NCBI GenBank assembly: GCA_024278175.1
Contig: JAJRTS010000100.1
Location: 1-64,000 of the forward strand
Reading direction: 5' to 3'
Length of the DNA: 64,000 nt
Source: Gemmatimonadales bacterium
Lineage (GTDB): Bacteria; Gemmatimonadota; Glassbacteria; GWA2-58-10
Of this stretch, positions 28,719-52,846 are shown in pieces. The position numbers were made by a program, and so were the translations under genes. Position 1 is the first letter of the stretch, and each line of letters starts with the position of its first letter. A model generated the notes under the pieces. The model searched no databases. It was not told the origin of the DNA and was given only the letters and a program-made list of their open reading frames with translations.

Positions 28719-29939
28719 CTAAAGCATGGCGGGGTCCGATCCGGCCCAGAGGCGCTTAAGGCCTTCGTATATCCCCCCGGCCAGCAGTTTTTCGCCCTCG
28801 CAGGTGCGATGAATTATGTCGGTGAACAGGTTCTCTCCGGCGGCCCTGTGCTGGTCGAACTCCGCGAGCAGCTCGATCACGGGCACGCCCATCCGCCGGC
28901 AAATATCACTCTGGACGCGGTTGATCAGCCGCTGGTTGATTCCCCGCACCATCGCGATCAGCGCCCTGTCGCCGGGCGACTCTTTCGCGCGGGCGTAGTA
29001 CTGATCGGCCAGGCGGCGCAGAGTAGCTTCGTCGTTCAGGTCGGCGCTGTCTTCGGCCAGCAGCGGCAGGTTGACCGGCTGGGTAACGTAGATGAACTCG
29101 ACTCCCGCCGCCCGGCAGTCCCCGATAGTCTTGATGAAGCATTCGGTGCTCGGCTCTTCTTGGTAATAGGCGATCTGGTTCTCGCGCCGGCTGTAGTAAT
29201 ATTTTTCGATCAGGTAGGTGTAGAGCATCGACCTCAGGTATAAACGTTTTTGCAGCCAGCCGATCAGCGGCTTATCTGCCAGCGCCAGCATCAGTTGCTC
29301 CACCTGGAAAAACGCCAGCGCCTCCACCTGCTCGTTGAACGCCTCGACATAGAGCAGGATGTCCGGATTGAAAATCAGCATCTTGGTATTGAGCAGCTGG
29401 TTGATCCGGGCGCAGTCGTAGGCGGTATGTCCGGTATTGATCACCTCGAATCTTTTATCGAGACCTTTGTCGTCATTGAGTAAAGCATTCAGGTGGGTGG
29501 TTGCCAGGTCGTCGTCGGGAAGGTACACGTTTTCCATGGTCGAGCCCCCGGCCACCATGATCCTGACCGTGCCCGCGGGTTTTTCCACCGCTATCTCCGG
29601 TGCGCGCCAGCAGAAGGAGTTATAGCTTACGGGCAGATAGTCGTCCAGGCAGGCGGAATATGCCATTTTGTCAAGGCAGGGCCTGTCGTACCCGGTGTTG
29701 GCCCAGGCGGGGTAATCGCGGACAGCCACGCCGTACTTGTCCGCCACGCTGTCGGGCAGGAACAGCCCATGCTCGTTCTTGTGGGTCTGGCTGACTTTCA
29801 GCAGCGGAGTGACCATGTAAAAAACATCCTTGCCGTGCAGCCGGAAATATTTGACCCGGCAGGCGATTTCGCCGGCGAAAATCACGGCTGCCAAGGCCAG
29901 TAGCGTAAACAGCGTTTTTTTAAAGAATCGTCTGGTCAT
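28719..29939 (-). CDS. SGNH-fold hydrolase, membrane anchored
   Basis: This 406-residue protein has an N-terminal membrane anchor (residues 8-24). The SGNH block I is GGSTME, and the catalytic Asp-His end is TDIIHRTCEG near the C terminus. Block II could be NTGHTAYDCA and block III EAFNEQ. Such proteins near an MBOAT gene act with it in O-acetylation of extracellular polysaccharides (AlgJ/AlgX or DltD-like logic). The gene is divergent from the MBOAT gene at 30160 across a 220-base gap, which favours a shared function. The exact acyl acceptor is unknown. Confidence 0.75.
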   Translation of the reverse strand: MTRRFFKKTLFTLLALAAVIFAGEIACRVKYFRLHGKDVFYMVTPLLKVSQTHKNEHGLFLPDSVADKYGVAVRDYPAWANTGYDRPCLDKMAYSACLDDYLPVSYNSFCWRAPEIAVEKPAGTVRIMVAGGSTMENVYLPDDDLATTHLNALLNDDKGLDKRFEVINTGHTAYDCARINQLLNTKMLIFNPDILLYVEAFNEQVEALAFFQVEQLMLALADKPLIGWLQKRLYLRSMLYTYLIEKYYYSRRENQIAYYQEEPSTECFIKTIGDCRAAGVEFIYVTQPVNLPLLAEDSADLNDEATLRRLADQYYARAKESPGDRALIAMVRGINQRLINRVQSDICRRMGVPVIELLAEFDQHRAAGENLFTDIIHRTCEGEKLLAGGIYEGLKRLWAGSDPAML

Positions 29940-42721: not shown

Positions 42722-43888
42722 ATGGATAAGCACTCTCACCCCCACGGGGCCGGACATCCCGGCGGCGGACACCCCGGCTCAATGCCGACCAGCGGCGGCG
42801 GTGGCCCGGAGCCGCTGGGCAACGCTCTTCGGCTTGTATTCTGGGAAACGACAGCGGGCTGCAACCTGACCTGCCGGCACTGCCGCAGGTTGGATCTGGC
42901 CCAGGACGGCCTGGCCCCCGGCGACATGAACACCGAAGCCTCCCTGCGCCTTATCGACAGCATAGTCAAGTTCGCCAGGCCGATTCTGGTACTCTCGGGC
43001 GGGGAGCCGATGATCCGGCCGGACATATTGGAGCTGGCCCGTTACGCCTCGGACAGGGAGTTGCCCGTGGCGCTGGCCACCAACGGGACGATGATTGACG
43101 GCGAGGTGGCCGACAGGATCGTGGCCTCCGGCGTGCGGCGGGTCTCGATCAGTTTCGACGGTTCCGACGCGGCGGTGCATGACCTGTTCCGCGGGCTGCC
43201 CGGTTCGTTCGACAAGGCGGCGGCGGGGTTCAGGGCGCTGCGCGAGCGCGGAATGAGCATGCAGGTCAACTGCACGGTGGCCCGCCACAACGACCATCAG
43301 TTGGACGAAATAGTGGCCCTGGCCAGGAAGCTGGACGCCGACGCGCTGCACTTTTTCATGCTGGTGCCCGTGGGCTGCGGCGTGGAGTTGAGCAAGAAGC
43401 AGCAACTCAGCCCCCAGCGCTACGAAGAAGTGCTCAACTGGGTGTACGACAAGACGCTGGAAAACCCGGACATTCAGATCAAGGCCACCTGCGCGCCCCA
43501 TTATTTCCGGATTATTCTTCAGCGCGGCGGCAAGGAAATGCTGACCAGGGGGCACGGCCACGGCACCATGCACACGATGACCCGTGGCTGCCTGGCGGGC
43601 ACGGCGGTCTGTTTCGTCAGCCACACGGGCGAGGTGTTTCCCTGCGGCTACCTGCCCGTGAGCGCGGGCAACGTGAAAGAAACCGCGTTCGAGGAGATCT
43701 GGAACGAGTCGGACCTGTTCGGGGAGCTCCGGGATCCGGGCAACCTGACAGGCAAGTGCGGCCTCTGCGAGTACAAGAACGTTTGCCTGGGCTGCCGCGC
43801 GCGCTCGTTCGGTGAGCTGGGCGACTACCTGGCCGAGGAACCGTACTGCACCTACGAGCCAGTGCGGGTCAAGCGCCGGCGGACCTGA
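42722..43888 (+). CDS. radical SAM/SPASM enzyme, AhbD/NirJ-like
   Basis: This 388-residue protein starts at ATG after GAGGAG. The N-terminal 25 residues are rich in His and Gly (KHSHPHGAGHPGGGHPG) and may hold metal. The radical SAM cluster is Cys47-x3-Cys51-x2-Cys54 in GCNLTCRHC, followed by LSGGEPMIRPD. The C-terminal SPASM-type end has CLAGTAVCFVSHTGEVFPCGYLP, then GKCGLCEYKNVCLGCRAR, Cys patterns very like heme b synthase AhbD and NirJ. AhbD decarboxylates Fe-coproporphyrin III in the siroheme-dependent heme route. No other heme genes are nearby, so the exact substrate is open. TTGACA at 42636-42641 may belong to a weak promoter. Confidence 0.75.
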   Translation: MDKHSHPHGAGHPGGGHPGSMPTSGGGGPEPLGNALRLVFWETTAGCNLTCRHCRRLDLAQDGLAPGDMNTEASLRLIDSIVKFARPILVLSGGEPMIRPDILELARYASDRELPVALATNGTMIDGEVADRIVASGVRRVSISFDGSDAAVHDLFRGLPGSFDKAAAGFRALRERGMSMQVNCTVARHNDHQLDEIVALARKLDADALHFFMLVPVGCGVELSKKQQLSPQRYEEVLNWVYDKTLENPDIQIKATCAPHYFRIILQRGGKEMLTRGHGHGTMHTMTRGCLAGTAVCFVSHTGEVFPCGYLPVSAGNVKETAFEEIWNESDLFGELRDPGNLTGKCGLCEYKNVCLGCRARSFGELGDYLAEEPYCTYEPVRVKRRRT

Positions 43889-44067
43889 GCGCAGGCGGGC
43901 CGCAGCGTGGCCTCGGTGGATTCACCGCTTTCTTTTGGAAACAGTGTGTGAAACCGCAAAGGCTAAACCGCCAAAGTGTTCAGTTTCGAACAAACTTAAA
44001 GCGCCCTGAGAAGTACCTCAAAAGTCAACTTATTGATTTGCAAGGCTGTACCAGGATGGCCTCTCTC

Positions 44068-44083
44068 TGGCACGGATAATGCT
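44068..44083 (+). promoter_or_regulatory. sigma-54 type promoter
   Basis: TGGCACGGATAATGCT matches the sigma-54 consensus TGGCACG-N4-TTGCT at all but one position, with GG and GC exactly 10 bases apart (the -24 and -12 elements). It lies 59 bases before the start codon of the 61-residue gene. A tandem repeat GCACGATTGACA / GCACGATCGACA follows in the leader at about 44107-44130. No neighbouring activator gene is visible. The 180 bases before it, back to 43889, show no gene. Confidence 0.6.
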
Positions 44084-44141
44084 TTTCTTCCGGACAGCAG
44101 GATCGAGCACGATTGACAGCACGATCGACACGGAGGAAAAA

Positions 44142-44327
44142 ATGAGGCTTACGATGATGGCGATGGCCACGGACAGGCTGGGGTGTCAGTTCGATAGAGG
44201 GATTAAGTGGGAAATGGTGCTGGTGGAGGTGAAGGTGAGTGATGGCGGCGCCGCGCGGCCGGAGGAGAGCGGATATATTATCCGTATCCCGGCGATTGCC
44301 GGCATCGGGAAAATTGGTCCCAACTAA
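44142..44327 (+). CDS. 61-residue protein of unknown function behind a sigma-54 promoter
   Basis: A small gene starts at ATG (44142) just after the strong ribosome binding site GGAGG with a run of A between. The product opens MRLTMMAMATDRLGCQFDRG, has a beta-strand-like middle (WEMVLVEVKVSDGG) and ends in a Gly/Ile-rich stretch (IIRIPAIAGIGKIGPN). There is no signal peptide and one Cys. Promoter, ribosome binding site, frame and terminator all fit one short transcription unit of about 310 bases, which makes a real gene likely despite the lack of any family match that I know. A longer frame from 44079 would begin inside the promoter and is unlikely. Confidence 0.6.
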   Translation: MRLTMMAMATDRLGCQFDRGIKWEMVLVEVKVSDGGAARPEESGYIIRIPAIAGIGKIGPN

Positions 44328-44373
44328 CGGCGGTTTTACGGTATCATATGGATCCCCCCAGTGCTGCAAACGC

Positions 44374-44405
44374 GGGGCGCGCCGCAGGCGCGTCCCGTTT
44401 TTGTT
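44374..44405 (+). terminator. Rho-independent terminator
   Basis: GGGGCGCGCC pairs with GGCGCGTCCC (10 pairs, one G-T) around a GCA loop and is followed by GTTTTTGTTTTT. It lies 47 bases after the stop of the 61-residue gene. Confidence 0.8.
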
Positions 44406-44543
44406 TTTCAGCTGAGAGCCGACTGTGAACATGGCGGAATAGCAGAGTTGGAGCAGCGGGCTGAGCTAGTTATATTCACATTTTGTTTTTCAGTGGTAAC
44501 ATCTATCAAGTAAGGCGTATCGGAAAGTGGAGGAGCACCGGTG

Positions 44544-45698
44544 ATGAGCAGGGAACTGGCGGCAAGGGCGCGGATGCTGCGGCAGTCGGAGATCAGGGCG
44601 ATGACGATCCGGGCGACAGAAAACGGCGGAGTGAACCTTTCGCAGGGGCTGTGCGAGCTGCCCACGCCCGCTGCGGTCAAGGCCGCCGCCTGCCGGGCTA
44701 TCGAGCAGGACTGCAATACGTACGCACCGCTCAACGGCAAACCGGACCTTCGCGCCGGGATCGCCGCGAGGATCAGGAAATTCAACGGGATCGAGGCCGA
44801 CCCCGCCACCGAGATCACCCTGACCAGCGGAGCCACCGGGGCCTATACCTGCGCGCTGATGTCCCTGCTGGAAGCGGGCGAGCGGGTGCTCACGTTCGAG
44901 CCGTTCTACGGCTACCATGTCAATCTGGTGCGCGTGCTGGGTTTCGAGCCGGTGTTCAGCCGCCTGAGGCAGCCGGGTTGGGAAGTGGACTACGACGCTC
45001 TGGAGCGGATGCTGGCCGACGGGGTGCGGGTGCTGGTGCTCAATACGCCCTCGAACCCCTGCGGCAAGGTTTTCTCGCGCGAGGAGTTGGAGAAAATCAG
45101 CGAGCTGTGCGTGGCCCATGACGCCTGGATGATCACGGACGAGATCTACGAGTATATCACGTTTGACGGCCATGAGCATGTCAGCCCGGCCTCGCTGCCG
45201 GGGATGTTCGAGCGCACGGTCACGATCTCCGGTTTCAGCAAAGCGCTGGCGATGACCGGCTGGCGGTTGGGCTGGGCCTCGGGGCCGGCGGAAGTGATCG
45301 AAAAGATGGCCCTGATCTCCGACCTGCTCTATATCTGCGCCCCGCACCCGCTACAGGAGGGAGTCTCCCGGGCGCTGGACGAGTTGGGTGACGGGTATTT
45401 CACTGCCCTGGCCCCGATGTACGACGCCAAGCGCGGGCAGTTGGCGGACGCGTTGAGCGCAAAAGGCTTTCGGCCCCTGCCGCAGCAGGGAACTTATTTC
45501 ATGCTGGCCGATTACAGAGATTTGTACGGCGATATCGGTTCGTTGGCGGCGATGGAGCGTCTGTTCGAGGAGTGCAGGATAGCAAGCGTGCCGGCGGCGA
45601 GTTTTTTCTCCGGCGGCCACGATGAGAGCTGGCTGCGGCTGTGCTTTGCCGTGCGCGAGGAGAACCTGCAGCGGGCCGTGGAGCTGCTGGGGGAGTAG
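44544..45698 (+). CDS. class I/II PLP-dependent aminotransferase
   Basis: This 384-residue fold-type I aminotransferase has the PLP-binding Lys233 in ISGFSKALAMTGWRLGW, NTPSNPCGKV with the conserved Asn, DEIYEY with the Asp-x-x-Tyr pair, and TSGATGA for the phosphate. It opens with the usual N-terminal helix and NLSQGLCELPTP. The ATG at 44544 is 8 bases after AGGAG; a GTG directly before it at 44541 is a weaker option. Substrate cannot be fixed; aspartate, aromatic or kynurenine-type amino donors are all possible in this group. It forms its own transcription unit with a hairpin 17 bases after the stop. Confidence 0.86.
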   Translation: MSRELAARARMLRQSEIRAMTIRATENGGVNLSQGLCELPTPAAVKAAACRAIEQDCNTYAPLNGKPDLRAGIAARIRKFNGIEADPATEITLTSGATGAYTCALMSLLEAGERVLTFEPFYGYHVNLVRVLGFEPVFSRLRQPGWEVDYDALERMLADGVRVLVLNTPSNPCGKVFSREELEKISELCVAHDAWMITDEIYEYITFDGHEHVSPASLPGMFERTVTISGFSKALAMTGWRLGWASGPAEVIEKMALISDLLYICAPHPLQEGVSRALDELGDGYFTALAPMYDAKRGQLADALSAKGFRPLPQQGTYFMLADYRDLYGDIGSLAAMERLFEECRIASVPAASFFSGGHDESWLRLCFAVREENLQRAVELLGE

Positions 45699-47492: not shown

Positions 47493-49060
<1,568 letters not shown>

Positions 49061-49283
49061 GGCCACTAAAGGTCTTGCACGGCATCAACACAGAAGGAAT
49101 GGCAGAAGGAAAACTGCCGCTCTTTCGGTGCAAAGCATGACCAGTGGTACTCACCATGGACGGTTATGACGAGCGCACAGCCTTACACCATTATTAATAA
49201 ATCTGTCAAACGTTATGGCAACCATGCAAAAGGCGCGTCAGGTTTGAAATCAACTCTGACGTGCATTTTTATGGGTGCCGAGC

Positions 49284-49360
<77 letters not shown>

Positions 49361-49453
49361 AAGAAGGCCATCTGCTGCGGTAAGCGGCGGTTAGCTCGAG
49401 AAGATAAAACGGTCGCTTGCGCTTAAAAGGCAAAAGCGGCTACACGGACAGAT

Positions 49454-49529
49454 GGGGATATAGCTCAAATGGGAGAGCGCCGGCTTTGCAAGCCGGAGGC
49501 TACCGGTTCGATCCCGGTTATCTCCACCA
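49454..49529 (+). tRNA. alaT: tRNA-Ala (TGC)
   Basis: 76 bases with encoded CCA. GGGGATA pairs with TATCTCC (one G-T), anticodon TGC at 49497-49499, and TTCGATCC in the T arm. Second tRNA of the 16S-23S spacer. Confidence 0.95.
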
Positions 49530-49565
49530 TCTGACAGATTGCAGTGCCGACACAGTTTCGGCAAA

Positions 49566-49578
49566 TGTTCTTTGAAAA
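49566..49578 (+). promoter_or_regulatory. second boxA before the 23S gene
   Basis: TGTTCTTTGAAAA is close to the leader boxA at 47368. It sits just before the RNase III stem, as in other rRNA operons. Confidence 0.6.
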
Positions 49579-49596
49579 TCGATTGTCTTGTCAAGA
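49577..49596. repeat. 23S processing stem, left arm
   Basis: These 20 bases (AATCGATTGTCTTGTCAAGA) are exactly complementary to 52696-52715 on the far side of the 23S gene. Further partly paired bases continue inward. This is the stem cut by RNase III. Confidence 0.85.
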
Positions 49597-49624
49597 TACG
49601 AGCCCTAGGTGACCGAGTTTTTCA

Positions 49625-52664
<3,040 letters not shown>

Positions 52665-52695
52665 ATATTCCTTCTTTGTCACTTAGGCGCTCGTG

Positions 52696-52715
52696 TCTTG
52701 ACAAGACAATCGATT
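52696..52715. repeat. 23S processing stem, right arm
   Basis: Exact complement of 49577-49596. Together they bring the ends of the 23S precursor into one stem. Confidence 0.85.
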
Positions 52716-52728
52716 TTCAATTCATCTT

Positions 52729-52846
52729 TGCCGGTGACTACAGCGAAGGGGAAACACCCGTTACCATTCCGAACACGGCAGTTAAGCCCTTCTGCGCTGA
52801 TGGTACTGCGCGGGTAACCGCGTGGGAGAGTAGGTCGTTGCCGGCT
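52729..52846 (+). rRNA. rrf: 5S ribosomal RNA
   Basis: About 118 bases. It has TGCCGGTGAC at the start pairing with GTTGCCGGC at the end, and the conserved CCGTTACCATTCCGAACACGG and GTGGGAGAGTAGG regions. Ends are approximate. Confidence 0.94.

What the first reader, a model, noticed from the sequence alone, without database searches (positions are those of the whole stretch)
44068..44405. Self-contained sigma-54 unit for a 61-residue unknown protein
In 340 bases there is a near-consensus -24/-12 promoter, a leader with a 12-base tandem repeat, a strong ribosome binding site, a 61-codon frame and a strong terminator. Such tight packing of signals is rare by chance, and the product matches nothing I know. 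It may be a stress- or nitrogen-regulated small protein, or an RNA with a coding part.
Basis: partly seen in the sequence, partly recalled or inferred. Interest (0 to 1): 0.65.

Follow-up and report, generated by a model that had tools for sequence, protein, structure and literature searches.

The report
Genus-specific sigma-54 small-protein gene
In an uncultured bacterium of the Candidatus Glassbacteria lineage, an activator-dependent promoter drives its own small gene for a 61-residue protein of no known family; a sister species keeps the same unit under selection, but it was found nowhere else, so it is a real yet narrowly distributed gene.

Summary
At 44068-44405 there is a -24/-12 element (TGGCACGGATAATGCT, 11 of 12 consensus positions), a GGAGG, a 61-codon frame and a strong terminator. 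The promoter motif alone is not rare (about 0.8 expected per window by chance); comparison makes the case. A same-genus genome (G001) has the unit upstream of the orthologous aminotransferase: promoter core letter-identical for 20 bases, protein 52% identical, frame under purifying selection (pN/pS 0.50, shuffle p=0.001), terminator conserved in form, while leader and flanks have drifted. rpoN is present. An IHF-like site and, more weakly, a palindrome lie at matching offsets upstream in both. The leader tandem repeat is not conserved and is probably incidental. A C-rich block (ATGGMTCCCCCCA) between stop codon and terminator is conserved beyond chance, leaving open a second, RNA-level role. 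Nothing similar in Pfam, NCBIfam, PHROGs, PDB sequences, phages, plasmids, viral contigs, GTDB-species contigs, or 393 other genomes of the phylum. Best explanation: a genuine, genus-restricted, sigma-54-dependent monocistronic gene for a small soluble protein, switched on by an unknown signal; its molecular function is inference only.

The parts
43977..43992 (+). candidate upstream activator site, palindrome TGTTC-N6-GAACA
   Evidence: At -91 from the -24 element; a similar sequence TGTTCGGTTTTATAACA lies at the same offset in G001; the joint pattern occurs once in each of these two genomes and in none of five others. Local similarity by itself not beyond shuffles: weak.
44026..44038 (-). IHF-like site AATCAATAAGTTG
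   Evidence: 13/13 match to WATCAANNNNTTR at -42 from the -24 element; G001 has a one-mismatch version at the same offset; similarity of the zone alone not beyond shuffles.
44068..44083 (+). sigma-54 -24/-12 promoter TGGCACGGATAATGCT
   Evidence: 11 of 12 consensus positions, best in the window; TCTCTGGCACGGATAATGCT identical in G001 while neighbours diverge; rpoN in the genome.
44094..44094 (+). predicted transcription start
   Evidence: 12 bases after the C of the -12 GC; inference, not mapped.
44106..44129 (+). 12-base tandem repeat in the leader (AGCACGATYGAC x2)
   Evidence: Present, not conserved in G001: probably incidental.
44132..44136 (+). ribosome binding site GGAGG
   Evidence: 5 bases before ATG; CGGAGG kept in G001.
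44142..44327 (+). 61-codon gene MRLTMMAMATDRLGCQFDRGIKWEMVLVEVKVSDGGAARPEESGYIIRIPAIAGIGKIGPN
   Evidence: 52% identical ortholog of 60 aa in G001; pN/pS 0.50 against 0.94 in shuffles, p=0.0012, lowest of six frames; no known family.
44348..44360 (+). conserved C-rich block ATGGATCCCCCCA in the 3'UTR
   Evidence: 12 of 13 bases identical in G001 at the same distance from stop and terminator; 0 of 400 shuffles reach this; in G001 it folds as a hairpin with loop CUCCCC.
44367..44405 (+). intrinsic terminator
   Evidence: 12-pair stem, 3-base loop, T run; G001 has a terminator hairpin with changed sequence (6-pair core CGTGCG-ATT-CGCACG, then CCTCTTTT) at the same place.

Best explanation
A genuine, monocistronic, sigma-54-dependent gene for a 60-61-residue soluble protein, restricted to one genus of the Ca. 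Glassbacteria lineage. Shown: the promoter core, RBS, reading frame and terminator form are conserved in two species and the frame is under purifying selection. Inferred mechanism: a signal-responsive AAA+ enhancer-binding protein binds upstream (candidate palindrome 43977-43992), IHF or HU bends the DNA at 44026-44038, and sigma-54 RNA polymerase held at 44068-44083 is activated, giving a ~310-nt mRNA from about 44094 to about 44403 that is translated from the strong GGAGG. The product has no helix-forming membrane segment in its sequence and is predicted, at low confidence, to carry a beta-hairpin; most likely it is a small adaptor or regulator of a partner protein made on demand under one condition (stress, surface or nutrient state). 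The partner and the signal are unknown; this last step is inference.
For: Ortholog in G001 upstream of the orthologous aminotransferase; identical 20-base promoter core amid diverged sequence; pN/pS 0.50, p=0.0012 and the lowest of six frames; RBS and terminator kept with changed sequence; rpoN in all seven genomes looked at; IHF-like site at the same offset in both. Elsewhere in the same genome sigma-54-type sites precede an Hsp20 gene (site also in G001 and G002), a prepilin-like gene, an AMIN/TPR-type gene (site also in G001 and G002) and two other short frames of 53 and 66 aa, so small on-demand proteins fit this regulon.
Against: Only two species carry it, so the conservation rests on one pairwise comparison. 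No transcript or protein data. The promoter motif alone is expected by chance about once per window. The activator site is weakly supported and no regulator is assigned. Function of the protein rests on nothing but size and a low-confidence fold (pLDDT 53 and 40).
Confidence: 0.8

Rival explanations
1. Dual-function RNA: the sigma-54 mRNA encodes the small protein and also releases, or itself acts as, a C-rich regulatory RNA; the UCCCCCC tract beside the terminator pairs with G-rich ribosome binding sites of other mRNAs.
For: The 3'UTR block ATGGMTCCCCCCA is 12/13 conserved at the same place, 0 of 400 shuffles; loop CUCCCC in G001. Precedents: UCCC loops of RNAIII and Rsa RNAs pair with SD sequences (PMC3861533); GlnZ is released from the 3'UTR of glnA mRNA (PMC9731577); ccaF1 is a small-protein gene co-transcribed with CcsR sRNAs (PMC10253847).
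Against: In the window's own sequence the block is not an apical loop in the minimum-energy fold; whole-transcript folding is no better than shuffles; no Rfam match; two sequences only. The coding signal shows that the protein matters in any case.
Confidence: 0.2
2. RiPP-like precursor peptide modified by the radical SAM/SPASM protein encoded just upstream (42722-43888).
For: A short frame next to a SPASM-domain radical SAM gene.
Against: The enzyme scores best as AhbD-type haem synthase, TIGR04545 453.8 bits, a little under the cut-off of 500; in G001 the gene upstream of the unit is a multihaem-cytochrome-like protein on the other strand; no leader/core pattern.
Confidence: 0.02
3. Truncated HicB-like antitoxin or a decaying remnant of one (similarity by eye of GYIIRIPAIAG to the HicB strand).
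For: Recalled resemblance only; predicted beta-hairpin 21-30/45-55 at low confidence.
Against: No Pfam, NCBIfam or PHROG hit at E<=5-10; no toxin frame beside it; the frame is under selection, not decaying.
Confidence: 0.04
4. Chance collection of signals without function.
For: A -24/-12 match of this quality is expected about 0.8 times per window.
Against: Conservation of promoter, RBS, frame and terminator form in G001, and purifying selection on the frame.
Confidence: 0.03

Closest known systems
Sigma-54-dependent genes with -24/-12 promoter, IHF site and upstream activator site (nifH, glnA, pspA type)
   Same: GG-N10-GC core with near-consensus TGGCACG-N5-TGCT; IHF-like site between promoter and a candidate activator site; rpoN in the genome.
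   Different: The product is an orphan small protein; activator and signal unknown; dependence on rpoN not tested.
Sigma-54-driven Hsp20 gene of the same genomes (G000:C6:9119, G001:C19:49953, G002:C13:17491)
   Same: Same promoter class in the same genomes.
   Different: Its upstream region carries repeated TGCCAN4TGGCA-like palindromes that the unit lacks, so probably another activator.
GlnZ (sRNA from the 3'UTR of glnA mRNA; PMC9731577)
   Same: Works-like lead only: protein-coding mRNA whose conserved 3'UTR block beside the terminator may act as RNA.
   Different: No processing or target evidence here; protein and sequence unrelated.
ccaF1-CcsR operon of Rhodobacter (PMC10253847)
   Same: Small-protein gene followed, on the same transcript, by an RNA element and a terminator.
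   Different: CcaF1 is a DUF1127 protein under RpoH control followed by four CcsR RNAs; here there is no DUF1127 match, one C-rich block and a sigma-54 promoter.

Membership tests
sigma-54-dependent transcription unit | -24/-12 element with GG-N10-GC close to TGGCACGN4TTGCW | tested here: met
   11/12 at 44068-44083; identical in G001
sigma-54-dependent transcription unit | rpoN encoded in the genome | tested here: met
   PF04552 over cut-off, one copy in each of 7 genomes
sigma-54-dependent transcription unit | upstream activator site and IHF site | tested here: inconclusive
   IHF 13/13 and palindrome at matching offsets, but similarity of these zones is not beyond shuffles
sigma-54-dependent transcription unit | expression lost without rpoN | not testable with these tools
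   no expression data
small-protein gene | frame conserved and under purifying selection | tested here: met
   52% identity, pN/pS 0.50, p=0.0012; one pair of species only
dual-function C-rich sRNA (RNAIII/Rsa type) | conserved accessible UCCC motif | tested here: inconclusive
   block conserved; accessible loop in G001 only
dual-function C-rich sRNA (RNAIII/Rsa type) | base-pairing to target mRNA ribosome binding sites | not tested
   no target search made
HicB antitoxin | match to HicB family models, HicA toxin beside it | tested here: not met
   no family hit at E<=10; no short toxin-like frame between its neighbours
RiPP precursor with radical SAM maturase | conserved linkage to a peptide-maturing radical SAM enzyme | tested here: not met
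   neighbour is AhbD-like and not linked in G001

The most novel reading that the evidence does not exclude
A sigma-54-controlled dual-function RNA: one transcript that encodes an orphan small protein and carries a conserved C-rich 3'UTR element that regulates other mRNAs, in a phylum branch with no described small RNAs of this kind.
Probability: 0.15. Interest if true: 0.6.

Novelty: new member of a known kind. Interest (0 to 1): 0.36.

Why it matters
It adds a new protein family, so far two members, to the short list of sigma-54-controlled small proteins and shows that such a unit can be found from raw sequence in an uncultured lineage. If the 3'UTR block proves active it would be a sigma-54 dual-function RNA. 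With Hsp20, a prepilin-like gene and two other short frames it outlines a sigma-54 regulon for Ca. Glassbacteria, where nothing has been tested experimentally to my knowledge.

Tried and rejected
Searches for relatives: genome contigs and viral-contig scans with the two-member alignment, phages, plasmids, 393 other genomes of the phylum, Pfam, NCBIfam, PHROGs, PDB sequences: none. The 3'UTR block as a recurrent element of the clade: GGMTCCCCCCA occurs 0-3 times per genome, mostly inside genes; one copy 13 bases after a sigma-54 site in G002 (L131/L151) looked promising but stands alone. The leader repeat as a functional element: not conserved. AlphaFold2 models too weak (pLDDT 53 and 40) for a fold search, which was therefore not run. 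Whole-transcript folding: no better than shuffles. RiPP, HicB and chance readings rejected as in the rivals. First script timed out.

Full report
What is there. The -24/-12 element at 44068-44083 is TGGCACGGATAATGCT: 11 of 12 informative positions of TGGCACGN4TTGCW, GG and GC ten bases apart, the best site on either strand of the window. A first-order Markov null gives 0.8 sites of this score per window, so the promoter alone proves nothing. The predicted start is 44094, the leader about 48 bases, GGAGG ends five bases before ATG 44142, the frame has 61 codons, the stop is 44325-44327 and a 12-pair hairpin with a T run ends the unit.

Comparison. A DNA search with 43889-44545 finds G001 (E 2e-7), and the protein finds a 60-residue ortholog, 52% identical, E 2e-13. 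In G001 it lies about 370 bases upstream of the orthologous aminotransferase (77% identical), as here about 210 bases. The gene upstream differs: an AhbD-like radical SAM protein here, a multihaem-cytochrome-like protein on the opposite strand there. TCTCTGGCACGGATAATGCT is identical in both, in surroundings that hardly align. The leader with its tandem repeat is not conserved, the RBS is. The terminator of G001 has a different stem sequence at the same place.

Coding. In the codon alignment of 60 codons the differences fall 21, 18, 29 on the three positions; pN/pS is 0.50 against 0.94 when columns are shuffled (p=0.0012), and the lowest of six frames. The start at 44142 is supported because identity begins there; an upstream in-frame ATG at 44079 lies inside the promoter. 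So the frame is a gene, on the evidence of one species pair.

Control region. At -42 from the -24 element lies AATCAATAAGTTG on the minus strand, a full match to the IHF consensus, with a one-mismatch version at the same offset in G001; at -91 and -93 lie TGTTCAGTTTCGAACA and TGTTCGGTTTTATAACA. The joint pattern of the latter occurs once in G000 and once in G001 and in none of five other genomes, though by local similarity alone neither zone exceeds shuffles. Each genome searched encodes one sigma-54. Other sigma-54-type sites precede Hsp20 (in three genomes), a prepilin-like gene, an AMIN/TPR-type gene (in three genomes) and two further short frames of 53 and 66 aa. The Hsp20 promoters carry TGCCAN4TGGCA-like palindromes that this unit lacks, so the activator is probably another one. 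Many other matches of the motif lie inside genes and are chance.

3'UTR. ATGGATCCCCCCA (44348-44360) and ATGGCTCCCCCCA are 12/13 identical at the same place between stop and terminator; 0 of 400 shuffles of the two 3'UTRs reach this. In G001 the tract is the loop of a six-pair hairpin; in the window it is not in the best fold. C-rich accessible motifs are a known signature of RNAs that pair with ribosome binding sites (PMC3861533), and mRNAs may release sRNAs from their 3'UTR (GlnZ, PMC9731577), also next to a small-protein gene (ccaF1-CcsR, PMC10253847). This is a lead, not a finding; the block might equally be an RNA-processing or terminator-assisting element.

Distribution. No relative in 393 other genomes of the phylum, in the contigs of GTDB species genomes by conserved-peptide scan, viral contigs, phages and plasmids, Pfam, NCBIfam, PHROGs or PDB sequences. 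The pattern-based scans reach only close relatives. In G004 the aminotransferase ortholog has no such unit upstream; in G003 the contig ends 427 bases upstream without it. The gene is thus restricted to the genus as far as can be seen.

What it does. The sequence has no membrane segment or signal peptide by eye; two low-confidence models suggest a beta-hairpin at most. My commitment is a small soluble adaptor or regulator made on demand when a sigma-54 activator is switched on; for this molecular role I would give about 0.3, for the gene and promoter as such 0.8. Novelty: a new family in an ordinary kind of unit.

Noticed in passing
L166:1286-1503 (-) (G000:C113, sigma-54 site 29049-29064) and L134 (G001:C8:60407-60635): A sigma-54-type promoter precedes a 154-base block 86% identical without gaps between the two species, with diverged sequence after it; it ends in CCAGC-TAC-GCTGG plus a T run, its two ends (GACCCA/TGGGTC) can pair, no shared start codon, no Rfam match, and it is absent from 99 other genomes. 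Candidate new sigma-54-dependent small RNA, perhaps more interesting than the finding itself.
   Followed up: partly
L162:1283-1441 (-) and L164:1594-1791 (+): Two further short frames (53 and 66 aa, no Pfam match) directly after sigma-54-type sites in the own genome.
   Followed up: partly
L022, L139, L119, upstream of the sigma-54 site: Hsp20 gene under a conserved sigma-54-type promoter in three genomes, with repeated TGCCAN4TGGCA-like palindromes about 100-150 bases upstream, probably the activator site.
   Followed up: partly
window 42722-43888: Radical SAM/SPASM protein of the AhbD (haem b synthase) type, 453.8 bits against a cut-off of 500, with a His/Gly-rich N-terminus MDKHSHPHGAGHPGGGHPG.
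   Followed up: no
window 47493-52846: Complete rRNA operon 16S, two tRNAs, 23S, 5S.
   Followed up: no
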